Assembly (NCBI RefSeq): GCF_024228675.1 | Contig: NZ_CP100461.1 | Coordinates: 2,291,398-2,355,397 of the forward strand | Source of the DNA: Salinigranum marinum | GTDB taxonomy: Archaea; Halobacteriota; Halobacteria; Halobacteriales; Haloferacaceae | DNA length: 64,000 nucleotides | Direction of reading: 5' to 3' | Shown here: positions 45,551 through 54,700 of the stretch, in pieces | Layout: each line of letters opens with the position of its first letter | Position numbering within the stretch: the first letter of the stretch is position 1 | Notes under the pieces: model-generated | Databases searched by the model: none | Told to the model about the DNA's origin: nothing | Seen by the model: only the letters and a program-made list of their open reading frames with translations | Program-made: the position numbers and the translations under genes

Positions 45551-46084
45551 GTGTAGGGGTCCGAGCCAGAGGGGGGAAGCGGTATGACACACGGATCGAG
45601 GGCTTCATGGTATCACCCTCGGTTCCATTCACGATCGAGAGTAGTAAATAAGTCATCCAACCGGGACGAAAGTGAAAATCGATATCCTGCACAACGATAC
45701 AGCGCTTGCCGTCAGCCATGCGTCAGACAGGGTTCAAAATGGACAACCGGCAGGACTTGAGTAACGTCTTCATCAGTACCACGACTCATGGACCTATTTG
45801 TATACTGTTAGGTGTAGCTGCAGTAGGGAGAAGGCCCGAACGAGATCAAAGTCATACCACTATTTCCACTATTCAAGTTTTTTGATTGCGATAGGTCCAT
45901 ACGTTCGCCATGGGCTGTTGCGCTCGCCTCTTAAGTGACTGGGACAGGAGCGGCACAGCTCGGAATCCGAAACGCGACAACCCGCCTCACATTGCTTCGA
46001 TTCCGATTGAACGCTCCCACGATATCGGAAGTATCGGAAATGGCACGGTTCTGATTAAGTGCTCTCGCGTGACAGTGTGCAGGT
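45551..46084. other. Gene-free region upstream of orc1/cdc6 with an inverted repeat
   Basis: ATGGACCTAT (45788-45797) and ATAGGTCCAT (45891-45900) are perfect inverted repeats 93 bases apart around AT-rich DNA with a CAAGTTTTTTG run (45874-45884). Origins in haloarchaea usually lie next to an orc1/cdc6 gene and contain inverted repeats, so this is a possible origin. I do not see a canonical ORB element. Confidence 0.4.
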
Positions 46085-47110
46085 GTGATCCAAGACGCCC
46101 GTGTGTTGCAACCGGAGTTCATCCCGAAGGAGGTCGCACACCGGGATGCAGAGGTCAACCACCTCTCACGGGCACTCGATCCCCTCACAGACGGCGATCC
46201 AGCCGAAACACCGCTCTTGCTCGGTCCCTCAGGAACGGGGAAAACCTGTATAGCCCGCTTTACCGTCGACCGACTCCGAGAGGCGATGCTCGAAGTCGAA
46301 CACCAGTACGTGAACTGCTGGCAGGACTACACCCGCTTTCGCCTGCTGTACCGACTCCTCGACGGAATCGGCCAGACGCTCGACGTCCATCGGCGCTCGA
46401 CACCCAAGGACGAACTCCTCGACCGGCTCCACGCGTACGACGGGAAACCGTACGTCGTCATCCTCGACGAGGTGGATCAACTCGAATCGACGGACGTCCT
46501 CTACGACCTCCACCGCATTCGTGGCGTCCATCCGATCCTCATCGCGAACCGCGAGCGTGACCTGTTCTCCCAACTCGACGACCGGGTTCGCAGTCGCCTC
46601 CAGAGTTCCGTCCGAATTCGATTCGACAAGTACGGTGTCGACGAGCTGGTTGCGATCCTCTCCGATCGCGTTCACTGGGGACTCGACGAGAACGTGGTCG
46701 ACGAGGCGTGTCTTCGGTACATCGCCGATGCCGCAGCCGGCGACGCCCGTGTCTCGATCGGGATCTTGCGAGCGGCCGCACGGGAAGCACAGGGGCACGG
46801 ACTCGATCACATCCCGATGGACGTTGTCGAAGAGGCAGTCCCCGAGGGCAAATCGGAACTGAAACGGAAGGATCTGGAGAAACTGACGCCCCACCAGCGG
46901 ACGGTGTACGAGATAATCGCCGAATCCGAAGAAGTGAGTCCTGGGACGCTGTACGACGAGTATCGTGAGCAGGTCGATGATCCGAAGACCAAGCGTACGA
47001 TCCGAAATTACTGCTCGAAGCTCGAACAGTACAACCTCATTCGCGCCGAGGGCCAGAAACGGGGGCGACGATATCGACTCGCCGCACGAGCGCCCGAGCT
47101 ATCAAACTGA
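46085..47110 (+). CDS. orc1: Orc1/Cdc6-type replication initiator
   Basis: 341 aa from the GTG at 46085. AAA+ ATPase: Walker A LLGPSGTGKT (near 46-56), Walker B YVVILDEVDQLES (near 123), sensor 1 around HPILIANRE, arginine-finger/sensor 2 region at DARVSIGILRAAAREA. The C-terminal 70 residues form a winged helix (LTPHQRTVYEIIAESEEVSP; RTIRNYCSKLEQYNLIRAEG). It is slightly shorter than chromosomal Orc1. Expected to recognise an origin close by, plausibly the region just upstream. Different from the primase-like protein at 21 kb, so the window may hold two replication modules. Confidence 0.88.
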   Translation: MIQDARVLQPEFIPKEVAHRDAEVNHLSRALDPLTDGDPAETPLLLGPSGTGKTCIARFTVDRLREAMLEVEHQYVNCWQDYTRFRLLYRLLDGIGQTLDVHRRSTPKDELLDRLHAYDGKPYVVILDEVDQLESTDVLYDLHRIRGVHPILIANRERDLFSQLDDRVRSRLQSSVRIRFDKYGVDELVAILSDRVHWGLDENVVDEACLRYIADAAAGDARVSIGILRAAAREAQGHGLDHIPMDVVEEAVPEGKSELKRKDLEKLTPHQRTVYEIIAESEEVSPGTLYDEYREQVDDPKTKRTIRNYCSKLEQYNLIRAEGQKRGRRYRLAARAPELSN

Positions 47111-47145: not shown

Positions 47146-47772
47146 TCATTCGCGGAGATCCGCAAGCGCTGATCGAGCGGCATCGGGTCTCATCGGCTCG
47201 TTATAGATCGGAGACCCTGGCTCCATGTGTGCACCTTCTTCGAGCGACCCGACATCGATTGGGGCGAAGCCGATCTCCTCGATGAGTCTCGCGACGGTCG
47301 TCTTCGCATTGGTATCGTCGCCTGCGATGAACAGGACCAGTCGCTCTTCGATCGGTGCATCCGGGTGCGCGTCGTCCCGAAGCGTCTCATAATACATGGT
47401 ATTGAAGCCCTTGGCCACGGTCGAATCGACGAGGTGTGCAGCGACGAGTTCGGTCTGCGTGTGGCCATCGAAATCGATCTCGCCGTCACGTTGTGGATAG
47501 TAGTTGGCCGCGCTGACGACGATCTTTCCGGAGAGGTCATCGACAGGCAAGGTCTCGTACGCGCCGAAGGGAATCGCTTCGAGGACGACATCTCCGAACG
47601 AAGCAGCCTCGTTGACTGTTCCGGCCCGTACGTTCGGGCCGAGTTCGGCGACGAGATCCGAAAGTGACTCTGGCCCTCGCGAATTGCTGATCACGATGTT
47701 GTGACCCGCGTCGACGAACAGTTGGGCTGCGGTACTTCCGATATTTCCCGAACCGATGATCCCGATCTGCAT
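47146..47772 (-). CDS. F420-dependent NADP oxidoreductase-like protein
   Basis: 208 aa. A Rossmann start MQIGIIGSGNIGSTAAQLFV, SNSRGPES for the NADP phosphate, and the EAIPFGAYETLP and KGFNTMYYETL motifs match the NADPH:F420 reductase-like/NAD-binding family. Convergent with orc1, 35 bases away. Metabolic outlier among replication genes; may be cargo. Confidence 0.82.
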   Translation of the reverse strand: MQIGIIGSGNIGSTAAQLFVDAGHNIVISNSRGPESLSDLVAELGPNVRAGTVNEAASFGDVVLEAIPFGAYETLPVDDLSGKIVVSAANYYPQRDGEIDFDGHTQTELVAAHLVDSTVAKGFNTMYYETLRDDAHPDAPIEERLVLFIAGDDTNAKTTVARLIEEIGFAPIDVGSLEEGAHMEPGSPIYNEPMRPDAARSALADLRE

Positions 47773-47952
47773 CTGTGCTCGGTAACTTTGAGGAGCGTCA
47801 AGAGTATAATCTGATCGACAGATGACACAGATTCAGAGAGGAAGGTTGCGACTCTCCGGTCGGCACCGAGGTAGTCGGAGAGGTCATCGAGAGACGGAAG
47901 TTTCGGAAACCACCCGCTCGGAATTAACCGTCTCTCGTCTCTCGTCCGTGGT

Positions 47953-48714
47953 ATGTCACGGAGCTCAATGAAACGGCCACTGCACGATGAGACTGCGAGG
48001 GGGCCAACGCTCCCGTCGCTCGACCCAGGGCTACACCTCGTCGACATCGACGAGCGTGCAGTCGGAGTCGTCCAGTCGCTCGTCATCGACCACGTCCTCA
48101 CAGATCAGTCCACTGGATCAACAGCAGTCTGGGTCGATAGTAACGGCGTGGCGACGACCAGTAGCCTCTCGCGAGTGGTCCCGAGCATGCGCCTCCTCGA
48201 ACGGATTCGAGTCGCCCGAGCGTTCACCGCCTACCAGCACCACAGTCTCGTCTCACAACTCCCCGAGGATGTAGACGAGAGCACGCCGCTCGTCGTCGTG
48301 CCGGAGTTCGAGTACCAGTACAGGAGCCCGGACATGCGGTTCGGTGTCGCACACGATCTCGTCGAAACGGGGATTCAGACACTCTCGACGCTCGCTCGCG
48401 AGCGTGAACTTCCGATACTCGTGACGAGAGAGACGACGGCACCACTCAGCGCTCCGATCGTTGAAGCGGCCGATTCGGTGCTCGGGTGTGAACTCACGCG
48501 GTTCGGCCCGCGATTCGTTGGAGAAGAGTTCGAAACACTCGTGTATCCCGTCGATGGCGGCTTCCAGACGACGCTCTCGTACTGGGCGGAGATCCTCTCG
48601 GTGCGCTTCCAGGCAGTACAGGAAGGGTCGACACCTCGCTCGCCGTCCGTCCCTGCATCGACGGATTCAGTCCCGATGTCTCCTCCGGAGGTGTCTGTCG
48701 ATGGGACGCACTAA
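47953..48714 (+). CDS. RecA/RadA-like protein without a P-loop
   Basis: 253 aa. Overall pattern is that of the RecA fold core (PGLHLVDIDERAVGVVQSLV, DSNGVATTSSLSRVVP; PILVTRETTAPLSAPIVEAA, DSVLGCELTRFG), but no GxxxxGKT/S is present, so it is probably a non-ATPase paralogue. It heads a cluster with a 90-aa protein (14-base overlap) and PolB2. Non-catalytic RecA-like proteins beside an error-prone polymerase occur in bacterial mutasomes; the analogy is mine. Confidence 0.6.
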   Translation: MSRSSMKRPLHDETARGPTLPSLDPGLHLVDIDERAVGVVQSLVIDHVLTDQSTGSTAVWVDSNGVATTSSLSRVVPSMRLLERIRVARAFTAYQHHSLVSQLPEDVDESTPLVVVPEFEYQYRSPDMRFGVAHDLVETGIQTLSTLARERELPILVTRETTAPLSAPIVEAADSVLGCELTRFGPRFVGEEFETLVYPVDGGFQTTLSYWAEILSVRFQAVQEGSTPRSPSVPASTDSVPMSPPEVSVDGTH

Positions 48715-48973
48715 TCCGACCTACCGAGAGACCATCCGTGGGCTCGAAGACCAGTGGCAACCCTTTCGACGGGCGCTCCGCTGTCGTGATCAGTCTCACT
48801 TCGACCGACTGTTCGAACACGCCCGAGCCCACGCTGATGCTGGTGGTCTCCTCAATCATCAGTTCGCTGAACTTCCGTTGCTGCTCTCGATACTCGTCGA
48901 ACAAGAACGTCGACTCAGCACGCTCGAACAGGCGATCGATAGCACGCAGCGAGAGGCCGAGGAGACCGACTGA
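48701..48973 (+). CDS. 90-aa protein between RecA-like and PolB2
   Basis: MGRTNPTYRETIRGLEDQWQ starts inside the end of the RecA-like gene. Highly charged, helical (LLSILVEQERRLSTLEQAID ends in a coiled coil). I recall small proteins of this type beside polB2 in haloarchaea but cannot name a family. Probably a complex subunit or adaptor. Confidence 0.6.
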   Translation: MGRTNPTYRETIRGLEDQWQPFRRALRCRDQSHFDRLFEHARAHADAGGLLNHQFAELPLLLSILVEQERRLSTLEQAIDSTQREAEETD

Positions 48974-49035
48974 TCGAACAGCACCTCTCACGCCGAGCGA
49001 CTGGACGCGTGACAGAAACTAGATCTACAGCGAGA

Positions 49036-49077
49036 CAAGCCGAGTGCTTCGGGGGGTGACCCCGAGGCAGTTCACCA
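49036..49077 (+). repeat. Relic of a tnpB right end between the 90-aa gene and polB2
   Basis: GCTTCGGGGGGTGACCCCGA and AGGCAGTTCAC repeat the hairpin and end of the element at 5608-5637 (GCCTCGGGGCTTGACCCCGA, GGCGGTTCAC). No tnpB is attached. It sits 8 bases before the polB2 start and may affect its expression. Confidence 0.6.
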
Positions 49078-49085
49078 GTACACCG

Positions 49086-51197
49086 ATGCCATTCAAATTC
49101 GAGTTCGACGAGGACGGGACGGTCACGATGTGGAACACAGCAGCAGCCGGGGCCGGGTACGTTCAGGAGACGGACTACCAGCCGACGATGTACGTCACAA
49201 CCGACGAGCAAAACCTCGATGGGCCTGCCGACCAGCTCCGAGACCTTCCATTAGTCGACACGGTCTCGGTCGCAGACAAGCGTCCGAGTTGGCGTCACGA
49301 CGTCGAACGCGTGCTCAAACTCACGATCGCTGGCCCGCCCCGAGCAACGCAGACACTGGCACGTCAGATCCACACGTGGGAGACACCCGGGACGTACCGG
49401 TGTTTCAACGTCGATTTCTCTCCGCAGTTCCGCTACTGTCTCGAGACAGAGACAGATCCAACCCCACAGACGGAGCTATCGACACTGTCGCTCGGTGTGG
49501 ACGAACTCGACGTGGCGAATCCGCCGGTCGAGACAGTTCGCGTCGATGGCGACCCACTCTCTGGACCACCGCCAGACCTTCTCGATCGTGTTGCAGCAGC
49601 CGTCGAAGAGCGTGACCCAGACGTCTTGATCGTCGACACGGCTGAACTCGTCCGCGTTCTCTTCGAGATGGCTGACGAGAGAGGAGACGCGTCGTTCAAA
49701 CTTGGCCGGGAACCCGGATGTGAACAACTTGCCGAGAAATCGACGTACGCGAGTTATGGCCGTGTTGGCCACTCACCCGCTCGGTACGACGTTCCCGGCC
49801 GAGTCATCGTGAACCGCGCGAACACGTTCTTTTTCCACGAGACCAATCTGGAGGGCTGTCTCGATCTCGTTGCTCGGTCACAGAAGCCACTGCAGGAACT
49901 CGCGTGGGCGTCGATCGGCAACGTCCTTACCGCGATCCAGATCCGCAAAGCCCGGTCGAGAGACGTGCTCGTGCAGTGGAAGCCGTGGCGTCCAGAGCGA
50001 TTCAAAACGATGCGCCAACTCCACGACGCCGACCGTGGCGGGGTCACGTTCGCACCCGACGTCGGACTCCACGAAGACGTCCACGAACTCGACTTCTCGT
50101 CGCTCTATCCCAATATCATCATCACGCGGAACATCAGCCCCGAGACGGTCCGATGTGACTGTCACGACCGCGAAGACGTGCCCGGACTCGGCTATAGCAT
50201 CTGCGATGAGCCAGGCTACCTCCCGGATGTGCTCGAACCACTCGTGTCAGATCGAGACGAGCTCAAAGACGCGCTGACGGACGCGACCGATCCTGATGAA
50301 CGAAGTCGTCTCAGCGGGCAGTCGGACGCCCTCAAGTGGATCCTCGTCTCGTGCTTCGGCTACCAGGGGTTCTCGAACGCGAAGTTCGGCCGGATCGAAT
50401 GTCACGAGGCGATCAACGCGTTCGCTCGTGAGATCCTCCTCGACGCGAAGGAGGTCCTCGAAGCGAACGGCTGGGAGATCATCCATGGAATCGTCGACAG
50501 CCTCTGGGTGACGCCGATGGATGGTCATGTACAGACGCCACTCGAAGCACTCTGTGCAGAGCTTACGGAAACGACGGGGATCCGTCTGGAGTACGAGGAC
50601 GCCTACGACTGGATCGCGTTCTGTCCACTGCGCGATAGCGAGGCTGGCGCGCTCACGAAGTACTTCGGACGCGTCAGCGGCCGAGGCGAGTACAAGTATC
50701 GGGGCATCGAGTGCCGACAGCGAAGTACGCCACCGTTCGTCGCCGCAGCGCAGCGTGACCTGATCGAGACGTTCGACGAACACCGGACCGCAGAGGCAGT
50801 CCGTAACCGACTCCAGTACTGGCGCGGACGGCTTCGTCGTGGCGACGTCGATGTATCGGAACTCGTCATCGACAATCGCGTCTCGAAGACGCTGGACGGG
50901 TACACGCAGTCGACCCGAAACGTCGCGGCGCTCGAACGCGCCGCGACACTCGGGCTCGATACGTCGGCAGGGGAGACACTGTCGTACGTGGTCGCGAACG
51001 ACGACTACGAGACGGCGTCACGGGTGCGCCTCGCCACGGAGGCAAGTGAACGATACGATACCGAGTTCTACGACGACCTCCTCGTCCGGGCGGCGACGAG
51101 CGTGCTCGCACCGCTCGGATGGCGAGAGCGGCGACTTCGCGAATATCTCTCCGAGACGACGAACACGACGTTGCAGTCGTTCACCGACCGTTCGTGA
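49086..51197 (+). CDS. PolB2-like family B DNA polymerase
   Basis: 703 aa from the ATG at 49086. Motif A is canonical (ELDFSSLYPNIII, Asp near 336), motif B is altered but recognisable (ALKWILVSCFGYQGFSN, Lys near 417). Motif C reads HGIVDSLWVT where active replicative polymerases have YGDTDS: the second Asp (near 471) is kept and the first is lost. The exonuclease region lacks the D-x-E motif (VDFSPQF). These features fit archaeal PolB2, thought to act in repair or translesion synthesis. Sits downstream of the RecA-like and 90-aa genes with a tnpB end relic between. Confidence 0.85.
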   Translation: MPFKFEFDEDGTVTMWNTAAAGAGYVQETDYQPTMYVTTDEQNLDGPADQLRDLPLVDTVSVADKRPSWRHDVERVLKLTIAGPPRATQTLARQIHTWETPGTYRCFNVDFSPQFRYCLETETDPTPQTELSTLSLGVDELDVANPPVETVRVDGDPLSGPPPDLLDRVAAAVEERDPDVLIVDTAELVRVLFEMADERGDASFKLGREPGCEQLAEKSTYASYGRVGHSPARYDVPGRVIVNRANTFFFHETNLEGCLDLVARSQKPLQELAWASIGNVLTAIQIRKARSRDVLVQWKPWRPERFKTMRQLHDADRGGVTFAPDVGLHEDVHELDFSSLYPNIIITRNISPETVRCDCHDREDVPGLGYSICDEPGYLPDVLEPLVSDRDELKDALTDATDPDERSRLSGQSDALKWILVSCFGYQGFSNAKFGRIECHEAINAFAREILLDAKEVLEANGWEIIHGIVDSLWVTPMDGHVQTPLEALCAELTETTGIRLEYEDAYDWIAFCPLRDSEAGALTKYFGRVSGRGEYKYRGIECRQRSTPPFVAAAQRDLIETFDEHRTAEAVRNRLQYWRGRLRRGDVDVSELVIDNRVSKTLDGYTQSTRNVAALERAATLGLDTSAGETLSYVVANDDYETASRVRLATEASERYDTEFYDDLLVRAATSVLAPLGWRERRLREYLSETTNTTLQSFTDRS

Positions 51198-51705: not shown

Positions 51706-52044
51706 ATGCCAACAGAGACGAACGATCGACACCCGCTCGCTCGACTCGAGTTTTCGAGTCGCGTGCGGAAACGCGCACAGTACGAAGCGTTCGAGTTCAG
51801 CCTCATCCCAGGTGGAGTCCGTGTCCGGAACGGCAGCTACGCCGACCCAGAGAACCACGAGTACGACGTGGCCATCCGTGACGGCGTTCCGGTCGCGTGC
51901 AGTTGTCCAGCTGACACCCATTTCGACAGTGCTTGTAAACATCGCGTCGCCGTCGCGATGCGACGTGCGGTTCTCGATGCGGCCACTCGGATGCAGGCAG
52001 TCACCAGTATCCGTTGCTCTGCGACCCAGTCAGAGTCCCCTTGA
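51706..52044 (+). CDS. SWIM zinc-finger protein
   Basis: 112 aa from the ATG at 51706. The SWIM motif is VACSCPADTHFDSACKHRVA (C-x-C, spacer, C-x-H) near 63-82. An N-terminal beta region (RAQYEAFEFSLIPGGVRVRN) precedes it. SWIM domains bind DNA or protein; stand-alone proteins of this type are common on haloarchaeal plasmids. Preceded by the GC-rich leader shared with two other genes. Confidence 0.85.
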   Translation: MPTETNDRHPLARLEFSSRVRKRAQYEAFEFSLIPGGVRVRNGSYADPENHEYDVAIRDGVPVACSCPADTHFDSACKHRVAVAMRRAVLDAATRMQAVTSIRCSATQSESP

Positions 52045-52187: not shown

Positions 52188-53147
52188 TCAATACGACTCT
52201 CGAAGCACGACCGTGCCGGTAGCCGTCGAGACAATGACGGTGTCACCACCGTTGTTCCAGAGTGCGCCGTCTGCGTCCCAGAACAACTCTGTCTGAGTGT
52301 TCGTGCCACTTCCAGTGGAGAGCGTCAATTGCTCACCGGGAGCGAGCGTCATTCCCTCGGGAATCATGTACGTGTGCCCGGCTTCGTCGGCAACGGTCCA
52401 CCCCGAGAGATCGAGCGTCTCGGTACCCGTATTCTCGAACACGAGGTACTCGTCGTTGAGGTTCTCGTTGTCGTTCCCGGCGGCGTCCGCGTGGATGCGG
52501 ACGAGTTCGAGCGGCACGGACTGTCCACTATCGGCGAGGGCCTCGGTCGCGGTCACCTGCGACGCGCCGGCGAATCCCCAGGCTCCCGTTCCCTCGTCTC
52601 TAGCTCGACGTTCGGCCGCAGCGAACTCGTCTCGTCGTGAAAAGTCCGTGTCGTAGAGGCGGGCGTAGCCACGTTCGATGAGACGCTGGTTGAACGAGCG
52701 GTCGTCACTGGAACTGGAGAGTGAGAGATACACCAGGAGGCGACCATAGCTCCCGCGGCGGTCAGCCTGTGGGTCGGTTCGGATCTGAACCGTTTCCCCC
52801 TCGAGTTCGGTCGTTGCGAACCGACTCGCGTTCTCTCCCCAGTTCCGGAGCCACGCTGCTCCCGCATCGGTGTCGGGGATTCCCTCCCACTCGCTCGGGG
52901 CTGTCTCGGTGTGTACCTCGGGCGTGTCGACACCCAGTAGTCGAACGGTCTCCTCTTGTCCGTCCGAGAAGCGGACGTCCATCGTGTCGCCGTCGGTGAC
53001 GTGAGTGATGGTCACCGTCACACCACGAGCGAGTGACTGCTCTCCGGCATCAGTGGTCGGAGATTCAGTGGGGGAGACACCGGCCGTACAGCCAGCGAGT
53101 ACGAGGAGTATCGAAACGACGAGCACACGAGAGACGGAACTGCACAC
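52188..53147 (-). CDS. Secreted lipoprotein with thermonuclease and lamin-tail domains
   Basis: 319 aa from the GTG at 53147. Lipoprotein signal SILLVLAGCTAG (lipobox LAGC). A staphylococcal-nuclease-type domain (about 40-190): DGDTMDVRF with the metal-binding Asp, VRLLGVDTPEV with the catalytic Arg and Asp/Thr, and RGSYGRLLVYL with the second Arg. The C-terminal 100 residues form a lamin-tail-like beta sandwich (DEYLVFENTGTETLDLSGWT). An extracellular, membrane-anchored nuclease able to degrade DNA for nutrition or competition. The longer frame to 53354 is not supported since it precedes the signal peptide. Confidence 0.88.
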   Translation of the reverse strand: MCSSVSRVLVVSILLVLAGCTAGVSPTESPTTDAGEQSLARGVTVTITHVTDGDTMDVRFSDGQEETVRLLGVDTPEVHTETAPSEWEGIPDTDAGAAWLRNWGENASRFATTELEGETVQIRTDPQADRRGSYGRLLVYLSLSSSSDDRSFNQRLIERGYARLYDTDFSRRDEFAAAERRARDEGTGAWGFAGASQVTATEALADSGQSVPLELVRIHADAAGNDNENLNDEYLVFENTGTETLDLSGWTVADEAGHTYMIPEGMTLAPGEQLTLSTGSGTNTQTELFWDADGALWNNGGDTVIVSTATGTVVLRESY

Positions 53148-53677
53148 GGTATCGCCTGTCCCCGACGGGACTAAGCCGTAATGGTCACCCAATGGTGAGA
53201 GGAGGGATATCGCGATGAAAAAGAAAGCCGAATCCGGATTGAGGCCGTTTGACCTCTGTCTTGAGGGCCAGGGAGGAGAGGTATATGTTCGTTGCCGTTG
53301 ATGTTCGTGCCACTCTCCTGGGCTGTTCGAATGTTTAGAGAAATTATCACACAATCGCAGTCGGTCTGTGCCGTGTCAGGTATCCCATCGTGTCAACTGG
53401 TTGTATGCAGCCTCACCATGGCTGACACGGAGAACGGAAGATCGAAAAAGAGTGTACGTGGGGAAATTCCTGCAAATGAGACGGCAGTCCGGTGCCGCAG
53501 ACCGAGGATTCCCTCTGTCAGTAGATCGGTATTCGATGGGATCTCTTCTGTATCTCGAACATCACTACTGACTGTTGCCGAGGAGTTCGTGTGAGTCGCA
53601 CTGAATAGAGGGCGCGTCTGCGGCACATTCAAATCCACGAACTCGCGTGGTAGCACACCGACTATAGAGACAGGGTC
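53148..53677. other. Intergenic region without a supported gene
   Basis: 530 bases between two minus-strand genes. Frames of about 65-100 codons exist on both strands but show no domain, no convincing start and mixed codon use. May contain decayed DNA; I recognise nothing. Confidence 0.4.
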
Positions 53678-54700
53678 TTAGAGATACAGTCGCTTCACTT
53701 CGGGCTCCTCACCGCCGGTAGAAATCAGTTCCACACTCGGTTGGAGGGCGGAACGTGACTTACCGACTCGTGCCGTTGCGCCTCCCGACAATCCTCGAAG
53801 CGCTCCACGTAGCTCCTCAGTCCGCGTATGGACGTGACCCGTTACGACCAAGTCTACCGGTATGTTTGCCTGCTCGCGGACTTCGCGGAGCGAGCAATCC
53901 GGACTCTTACTCTCGCTGAATGGCGAGAGGGACTGGTGTACGAAGAGCATCGTGCTCATGCTGTCAGGTGCACGTTCAAGGTCGGGGACGAAATCTGCCC
54001 AGTTTGACTGGTAGTCGATTCCATAAACCGCGACGGCATCGTTAATGCTGTCATACCGGGGGCCGAGATGTTCCGCTAAATTGTCGTCGACGAATCGGTT
54101 CATAACCCGCCGACCAGCCTGGCGCTCATGATTACCATAAATGAAGTAAAACGGGATCCCGCTCTCGGCAAGCGCAACGAGACCCTCCCGACAGAGTGCG
54201 ATTTCCTCTGGACTGATCCCATCCCCCGGATTGTGGAAGAGATCGCCCCCGTGAATGACTGCGTCGACATCCATGCTGATCGCAGCTTCAATTGCACGGT
54301 CGAACCCGTTTTCGGGAGAAATCGGCCAAGACGAGCCGCCATAGCTGTGTGATGTCTTTCCGAGATGGCTATCAGTTGCATAAAGAATGTCGGCCCGTCG
54401 TCTGTTTCGTTTGGGACCGAGGTACTCGACAACAAGCGATGACGTGCCGTGTGGGACAGTTCCAGATGGCCAGACGTTGGCCGTGACTCCACCGAGACGA
54501 TACCAACAGCCCTCCTTCCACTCGCAGTTCGTCCCCTGTTCTGAACTCGTCCACACGATAAACTGGAACCGAGTCCCCTCGACATCCTCAAGGCTCAGTT
54601 CGTACGCGCGGTTCTCTCTCTGGGCCTTCGAACGATTGCGAACCCGAACGACCATCTCGTAATGACCGTCTTCCCCGAGTTCCCGATAGGTTACAGCCAT
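53678..54700 (-). CDS. Calcineurin-like metallophosphoesterase
   Basis: 340 aa. An N-terminal beta domain (about 1-95, possibly OB-like: ENRAYELSLEDVEGTRFQFI) precedes the phosphoesterase: ILYATDSHLGK, VIHGGDLFHNPGD, YFIYGNHERQAG and VVTGHVHTR, i.e. the D-x-H, GD, GNH(E) and GHxH metal ligands. Overall similar to Mre11/SbcD-type nucleases, without a Rad50 partner here. The N-terminal domain suggests nucleic-acid targeting. Possible defence or repair enzyme. Confidence 0.85.
   Translation of the reverse strand: MAVTYRELGEDGHYEMVVRVRNRSKAQRENRAYELSLEDVEGTRFQFIVWTSSEQGTNCEWKEGCWYRLGGVTANVWPSGTVPHGTSSLVVEYLGPKRNRRRADILYATDSHLGKTSHSYGGSSWPISPENGFDRAIEAAISMDVDAVIHGGDLFHNPGDGISPEEIALCREGLVALAESGIPFYFIYGNHERQAGRRVMNRFVDDNLAEHLGPRYDSINDAVAVYGIDYQSNWADFVPDLERAPDSMSTMLFVHQSLSPFSESKSPDCSLREVREQANIPVDLVVTGHVHTRTEELRGALRGLSGGATARVGKSRSALQPSVELISTGGEEPEVKRLYL

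What the first reader, a model, noticed from the sequence alone, without database searches (positions are those of the whole stretch)
47953..51197. RecA-like / 90-aa / PolB2 cassette as a possible archaeal mutasome
A RecA-fold protein without a P-loop overlaps a 90-aa coiled-coil protein and is followed by a PolB2-type polymerase that lacks an exonuclease D-x-E motif and has GIVDS instead of GDTDS in motif C. In bacteria, ImuA (RecA-like), ImuB (inactive polymerase) and DnaE2 form a translesion mutasome. The organisation here is analogous, though the components are not homologous in detail.
Basis: partly seen in the sequence, partly recalled or inferred. Interest (0 to 1): 0.6.

Follow-up and report, generated by a model that had tools for sequence, protein, structure and literature searches.

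The report
Haloarchaeal PolB2 mutasome operon
Three neighbouring genes in a salt-loving archaeon encode a known error-tolerant DNA-copying complex, and they share an unusual promoter sequence with a nearby replication-initiator-like gene, which suggests how the complex may be switched on.

Summary
The window carries, in order, an inactivated RadA (iRadA), a 90-aa helical protein that begins MGRT (PPB2) and a PolB2 polymerase with GIVDS in motif C. This is the "PolB2 mutasome" of Timinskas et al. 2025, whose operon was described in 2014. GIVDS is invariant in 14 of 14 relatives examined. Pol V is a closer analogue than ImuA/ImuB/DnaE2. What I did not find in print is a promoter element, a 9-bp direct repeat (GGAA-N5-GGAA) shortly before a TATA-like box. 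It stands before both iRadA and the adjacent Cdc6-like AAA+ gene. The whole 4.9-Mb genome has five matches: four before cdc6/orc genes (one of these probably an origin box) and one before the mutasome. In 147 matches examined from 194 genomes, 60 lie directly upstream of cdc6/orc or iRadA genes. I propose that the Cdc6-like protein controls the mutasome, as Orc1-2 does in Sulfolobus. That step is inferred.

The parts
47953..48714 (+). iRadA: RadA/Rad51-fold protein without Walker A/B, 253 aa
   Evidence: (weak RadB)
48701..48973 (+). PPB2 (arCOG07300-type), 90 aa, starts MGRT
   Evidence: MGRT in 10 of 12 aligned sequences (L010 MGRM, L014 MSHT)
48687..48693 (+). Shine-Dalgarno-like GGAGGTG for PPB2, inside iRadA
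   Evidence: read by eye
49086..51197 (+). PolB2, 703 aa from ATG (GTG 49044 is an alternative upstream start)
   Evidence: NF004418 1001.8 bits; PF00136; A3 alignment
50487..50501 (+). motif C, GIVDS in place of GDTDS
   Evidence: invariant in 14 of 14; opposite D-T-D of solved polymerases
50001..50036 (+). FKTM (FxxA-like) plus the A-D-R-G-G segment carrying the D(K/R) motif, predicted iRadA/PPB2 contact
   Evidence: role from PMC11791011, not tested
51162..51182 (+). C-terminal NTTLQSF, weak PCNA-binding-like L-x-x-[FY]
   Evidence: L-x-x-[FY] in 14 of 14; function inferred
46085..47110 (+). Cdc6/Orc1-like AAA+ protein, 341 aa, Walker A/B intact, winged helix; proposed regulator
   Evidence: TIGR02928 194.7 bits, PF13401, Cdc6_lid, Cdc6_C
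46027..46058 (+). promoter element GGAAGTATCGGAA...TTAA upstream of cdc6-like
47896..47927 (+). promoter element GGAAGTTTCGGAA...TTAA upstream of iRadA

Best explanation
The three genes encode a PolB2 mutasome: PolB2 does the synthesis, probably extending mispaired or lesion-blocked primer ends; iRadA, a dead RadA, docks on PolB2 through a RadA-type oligomerisation contact; a PPB2 trimer inserts its MGRT arm between them near the DNA. Shown here: the family membership of all three proteins, the loss of the P-loop and of the exonuclease site, the GIVDS motif, tight co-occurrence, and a shared promoter element with the Cdc6-like gene. Taken from papers on Sulfolobus: polymerase activity, damage induction, role in mutagenesis. 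Inferred: assembly of these particular proteins, clamp binding through the PolB2 tail, and control by the Cdc6-like AAA+ protein at the GGAA-N5-GGAA promoter repeat (about 0.45 for that last step alone).
For: Family and motif results. Co-occurrence: of 194 genomes 130 have PolB2, 117 PPB2, 118 iRadA, 116 all three, 0 PPB2 without PolB2. Of 150 listed polB2 copies, 99 have both partners upstream on the same strand (PPB2 within 1 kb, iRadA within 1.7 kb) and 121 within about 10 kb (lists capped at 150, so lower bounds). Promoter element: 5 genome-wide matches, 0 with the reversed pattern, four before orc/cdc6 genes and one before iRadA. In 147 of 150 listed class-wide matches: 38 before Cdc6-like genes (36 of 38 at 56-66 bp from the match to the gene), 14 before iRadA, 8 before other orc genes, 87 elsewhere. 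GGAA-N4/5-GGAA lies 30-150 bp upstream of iRadA in 22 of 29 loci against 0.004 expected per window. Cdc6-like gene within 10 kb of 78 of 150 listed iRadA genes.
Against: No complex, activity or induction was tested for this organism. 12 of 130 PolB2 genomes show neither partner and 2 show only one; 16 of 150 PolB2 copies have neither within 10 kb. The PolB2 structure prediction was poor (pLDDT 50). For the regulation step: 7 of 29 loci lack the repeat upstream of iRadA, 87 of 147 matches are elsewhere, 14 genomes have the Cdc6-like gene without PolB2, and no binding data were found.
Confidence: 0.85

Rival explanations
1. PolB2 is a dead polymerase that serves as a scaffold in replication initiation or origin control, together with the orc/cdc6 neighbour.
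For: The first catalytic Asp of motif C and the exonuclease are lost; an orc/cdc6 gene is a frequent neighbour; proposed as one option in PMC4104785 (passages).
Against: Dpo2 with the same kind of motif C change is a robust polymerase (abstract of PMC8764526); motif A Asp, the second motif C Asp and the motif B Lys are kept in all 14; the polymerase is absent from 64 of 194 genomes, odd for an initiation factor.
Confidence: 0.08
2. It is an archaeal version of the ImuA-ImuB-DnaE2 mutasome by descent.
For: Same general layout: RecA-fold protein, small partner, polymerase.
Against: The polymerase is B-family, not C-family; no Y-family ImuB counterpart; iRadA groups with RadA/Rad51. Only the RecA fold is shared.
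Confidence: 0.02
3. The GGAA repeat is not a regulatory site but part of a replication origin (ORB-like) next to orc/cdc6 genes, or a basal-promoter feature.
For: ORBs lie beside haloarchaeal orc/cdc6 genes (PMC3528665, passages); the C3 match and the related orc matches look ORB-like (GCGGAAACGGTGG).
Against: The tight class sits at a near-fixed 56-66 bp before Cdc6-like genes, directly before a TATA-like box, in one orientation, also before iRadA genes, with no G-string or inverted pair in the stretches that I read. A basal feature would not be this rare in a 4.9-Mb genome.
Confidence: 0.3

Closest known systems
PolB2 (Dpo2) mutasome of Sulfolobus and others (iRadA-PPB2-PolB2), PMC11791011
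   Same: Same three families, motif C substitution, dead exonuclease, dead RadA, MGRT arm, D(K/R) motif, gene order iRadA-PPB2-PolB2, orc/cdc6 neighbour
   Different: Euryarchaeal, halophilic; a clamp-like motif appears at the PolB2 tail in all 14 aligned here, whereas the paper finds PCNA motifs in only a small fraction of PolB2
E. coli Pol V (UmuC-UmuD'2-RecA)
   Same: Polymerase plus RecA-family partner plus small oligomeric partner with an N-terminal arm (analogy drawn in PMC11791011)
   Different: Y-family polymerase, active RecA, unrelated small subunit
ImuA-ImuB-DnaE2
   Same: RecA-fold protein encoded next to an accessory protein and a polymerase (recalled)
   Different: B-family polymerase; no ImuB; no C-family polymerase
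Sulfolobus Orc1-2 regulon with the DDRE ANTTTC (PMC9738581)
   Same: A non-initiator Orc1/Cdc6 protein binds its own promoter and damage-response promoters
   Different: Here only a 9-bp GGAA direct repeat is seen; binding by the Cdc6-like protein is not shown; the set of targets appears tiny
Halobacterium UV motif TTTCACTTTCA (PMC2556686)
   Same: Short direct repeat upstream of the TATA box about 50 bases from the start codon
   Different: Different sequence and period; found (1 mismatch) in only one iRadA promoter here, L005, which lacks the GGAA repeat

Membership tests
PolB2 mutasome | PolB2-group B-family polymerase | tested here: met
   NF004418 1001.8 bits over cut-off 692
PolB2 mutasome | first Asp of DxD (motif C) replaced, exonuclease site lost | tested here: met
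   GIVDS 14 of 14; Exo I D-I-E not kept; no PF03104
PolB2 mutasome | RadA homologue without N-terminal domain and with dead ATPase site | tested here: met
   no GK[ST] in the 253 aa
PolB2 mutasome | PPB2, about 90 aa, N-terminal MGRT | tested here: met
PolB2 mutasome | three genes adjacent and co-occurring | tested here: met
   116 of 130 PolB2 genomes
PolB2 mutasome | conserved D(K/R) motif after an FxxA-like segment in PolB2 | tested here: met
   ADRGG invariant, [FY]-K-x-x before it; contact itself not tested
PolB2 mutasome | sliding-clamp motif in PolB2 or iRadA | tested here: inconclusive
   L-x-x-[FY] at the PolB2 tail in 14 of 14 by eye; no profile or binding test; none seen in the window iRadA
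PolB2 mutasome | heteropentamer, damage induction, translesion activity | not testable with these tools
   needs complexes and cells
ImuA-ImuB-DnaE2 mutasome | C-family polymerase DnaE2 | tested here: not met
   polymerase matches only PF00136 (B-family)
ImuA-ImuB-DnaE2 mutasome | Y-family-like ImuB | tested here: not met
   second gene is a 90-aa protein with no Pfam or NCBIfam match
Orc1-2-type damage regulon | Orc1/Cdc6 AAA+ protein with winged helix | tested here: met
Orc1-2-type damage regulon | shared element at its own promoter and at target promoters | tested here: met
Orc1-2-type damage regulon | the protein binds the element; damage-dependent expression | not testable with these tools
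   needs EMSA/ChIP and expression data

The most novel reading that the evidence does not exclude
Haloarchaea have a small, self-contained damage-response circuit: a non-initiator Cdc6-like AAA+ protein binds a 9-bp direct repeat (about TATCGGAAnnATCGGAA) just upstream of the TATA box of its own gene and of the iRadA-PPB2-PolB2 operon and thereby switches the mutasome on. It would be a haloarchaeal counterpart of LexA control of Pol V and of Sulfolobus Orc1-2, with a different DNA code, in a group whose damage regulator I did not find described.
Probability: 0.45. Interest if true: 0.7.

Novelty: new member of a known kind. Interest (0 to 1): 0.45.

Why it matters
The complex itself is published, but some haloarchaea are genetically tractable, and this operon gives a clear euryarchaeal test case: does a polymerase with GIVDS need its dead RadA and helical partner to make mutations? 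The promoter repeat, if it is the Cdc6-like protein's site, makes the question of what drives error-prone repair in haloarchaea directly testable with one deletion and one promoter mutant.

Tried and rejected
ImuA/ImuB/DnaE2 homology: rejected on family searches. PolB2 as plainly inactive: rejected on published Dpo2 activity (abstract). A second full mutasome in this genome: rejected; the plasmid-sized contig's PolB2 (C3:209612-211675) lacks the N-terminus and has no partner, with a TnpB remnant just upstream. The Halobacterium UV motif at the window's iRadA promoter: not there. PolB2 structure model: pLDDT 50, not used. PPB2 against solved structures: nothing convincing (best E 0.014). The search for related loci on genome contigs gave only 2 loci. 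Literature: searches (94 was badly set, one term sufficing) brought no report of the GGAA repeat; I saw passages, not whole texts, of PMC4104785, PMC9738581, PMC3528665, PMC1224876, PMC2556686, the outline and abstract of PMC8764526, and parts 1-4 of 7 of PMC11791011 plus one term search.

Rows dropped: duplicate genomes L023 and L035, and L006, L012, L014 without an iRadA hit; of the 150 listed class-wide matches, three repeats (G057 two, G193 one) were not fetched; further matches were not listed by the tool. The 20 loci were chosen by me from 150 listed, not at random. The control total for (47 by my hand count of the control columns against at least 150 real) is approximate.
Full report
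What is there. The window lies on the 4.0-Mb contig C1 of a 4.9-Mb, four-contig genome. The named records with this operon that I opened are all haloarchaeal. On the + strand stand a Cdc6/Orc1-like AAA+ gene (46085-47110), a divergent npdG-like oxidoreductase (47146-47772, - strand), then iRadA (47953-48714), PPB2 (48701-48973) and PolB2 (49086-51197). iRadA and PPB2 overlap by 14 bases, with a GGAGGTG site for PPB2 inside iRadA.

The RecA-fold protein. A profile of 11 relatives matches RadA, Rad51, Dmc1 and RadB structures (best E 5.9e-10); an AlphaFold model of the window protein (mean pLDDT 78.1) matches RadA/Rad51/Dmc1 folds with Foldseek probability 1.00 and TM about 0.5-0.6. The sequence has no GK[ST]; the loop between the first strand (26-32) and helix (37-50) reads about DERAVGVVQ, and the Walker B strand reads LVVVPEF. 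It starts at the core domain, without RadA's N-terminal domain. Only a sub-threshold RadB match (28.9 bits, cut-off 172.4) is found in NCBIfam, and none in Pfam.

The 90-aa protein. It begins MGRTNPTYRE. Of 12 aligned sequences, 10 begin MGRT (GTG or TTG starts read as M), one MGRM and one MSHT. PMC11791011 (read) names MGRT as the conserved arm of PPB2. No family model or solved structure matches it convincingly.

The polymerase. Motif A D-x-x-S-L-Y-P, the motif B lysine and the second motif C aspartate are invariant in 14 of 14 sequences, and GIVDS is invariant too. Against solved archaeal polymerases GIVDS stands opposite the D-T-D site, and the exonuclease Exo I D-I-E is not kept. PF03104, the exonuclease domain, is not found in this protein, but is found in another PolB of the same genome. 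All 14 end in L-x-x-[FY], at the place where B-family polymerases carry their PCNA-binding motif (place recalled); I take it as a likely weak clamp motif, untested.

Known or not. The three-gene set, its inactive RadA, its 90-aa partner and an orc/cdc6 neighbour were described in 2014 (PMC4104785, passages) and named and modelled as the PolB2 mutasome in 2025 (PMC11791011). Purified S. islandicus Dpo2 is a robust polymerase without proofreading that extends mismatched and lesion-paired ends (abstract of PMC8764526).

Its refuter, tested. In 194 Halobacteria genomes at least 90% complete, PolB2 is found in 130, PPB2 in 117, iRadA in 118; all three in 116; PPB2 without PolB2 in none; iRadA without PolB2 in one; PolB2 with neither partner in 12, with iRadA only in one, with PPB2 only in one. 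E-value thresholds were 1e-20, 1e-6 and 1e-15. Of 150 listed PolB2 copies, 99 have both partners upstream on the same strand (PPB2 within 1 kb, iRadA within 1.7 kb), 121 within about 10 kb, 16 have neither. Fisher tests are extreme but ignore shared ancestry.

Copies in this genome. Only one PPB2 and one full iRadA exist, both in the window. A second PolB2 on contig C3 (209612-211675) lacks the first residues and any partner, and a TnpB C-terminal remnant lies just upstream. The operon in the window is thus the only complete one.

A shared promoter element. Reading upstream regions showed GGAA-N5-GGAA, usually about TATCGGAAnnATCGGAA, about 19 bases before TTAT/TTAA, in front of iRadA and again in front of the Cdc6-like gene. 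In the window the two copies are at 47896 and 46027. GGAANNNNYGGAA alone gives four window matches against 1.1 expected, so the repeat alone is weak in one window; with the TATA spacing it is very rare: five matches in the whole genome and none for the reversed pattern. Those five precede the window cdc6-like gene, the window iRadA, a second cdc6-like gene on C1 (L042), a near-identical cdc6-like copy on C2 (L045), and a 412-aa orc/cdc6 gene on C3 (L046). The C3 match differs and resembles an origin box.

Class-wide check. The same pattern in the 194 genomes gave more than 150 matches. I examined 147 of the 150 listed (loci) and asked what starts within 250 bases downstream: 38 Cdc6-like genes (36 of them 56-66 bases from the match), 14 iRadA, 8 other orc/cdc6 genes, 87 something else. 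The Cdc6-like class has a long consensus, TaTCGGAAgtaTCGGAAaC.aCCCggttcCGtTTAt, while the 'other' class shows little beyond the searched letters. A few of the 'other' matches carry the full consensus but stand before no intact gene I could name; L179 looks like a decayed cdc6-like gene. In 22 of 29 loci a GGAA-N4/5-GGAA lies 30-150 bases upstream of iRadA, against 9 matches in 279,646 bases elsewhere, that is 0.004 expected per window. One locus without it, L005, has instead ATTCACTTTCA, one mismatch from the Halobacterium UV motif of PMC2556686.

The Cdc6-like gene is found (at least 400 bits among the listed matches) in 90 of 130 PolB2 genomes and 14 of 64 others, and within 10 kb of 78 of 150 listed iRadA genes. 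So it is linked to the mutasome but not confined to it.

How it most likely works. PolB2, held by iRadA and a PPB2 trimer, extends primers past damage. In Sulfolobus a non-initiator Orc1-2 binds a short element at its own and other damage-response promoters (PMC9738581, passages). By analogy the Cdc6-like protein is a good candidate to bind the GGAA repeat and to control itself and the mutasome. Binding, direction of control and damage response are inference; an origin function of the repeat is the main rival.

Noticed in passing
L006 (G000:C3:203000-219000), PolB2 at C3:209612-211675: Second PolB2 of the genome lacks its N-terminus and partners; a TnpB (PF07282) remnant lies just upstream.
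   Followed up: partly
L045 (G000:C2:320892-323923): Near-identical copy of the window's cdc6-like gene with its promoter element and part of the npdG-like neighbour: probably a recent duplication. Four strong cdc6-like copies in this genome in all.
   Followed up: partly
window 47146-47772 (-): An npdG-like oxidoreductase sits between cdc6-like and iRadA; none of 33 other loci has it there.
   Followed up: no
L012 (pNRC200 of Halobacterium NRC-1): polB2 is separated from a PPB2 fragment by an IS200/IS605 transposase and no iRadA was detected: the operon looks broken in this model strain.
   Followed up: no
L014 (Haladaptatus halobius plasmid): PPB2 homologue begins MSHT with the arm shortened and no iRadA was detected: a decayed or altered mutasome beside a full-length PolB2.
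   Followed up: no
L005, about 70 bases upstream of iRadA: ATTCACTTTCA, one mismatch from the Halobacterium UV-B motif, in a locus that lacks the GGAA repeat.
   Followed up: partly
L016, 71-757: SRAP (PF02586) gene between a Cdc6 gene and the mutasome on a Natrinema plasmid, as the 2025 paper reports for polB2 neighbourhoods.
   Followed up: no
L046, L107, L153, L158, L172: A second, ORB-like class of the repeat (GGAAATAGCGGAAACGGTGGTCG) about 107 bases before other orc/cdc6 genes.
   Followed up: no
L003 (G000:C1:2107058-2110516): Another PolB of the genome with an exonuclease domain match and an intein.
   Followed up: no
window 51706-52041 (+), 52191-53354 (-), 53681-54700 (-): Neighbours downstream: SWIM zinc finger protein, staphylococcal-nuclease plus lamin-tail protein, calcineurin-like phosphoesterase.
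   Followed up: no
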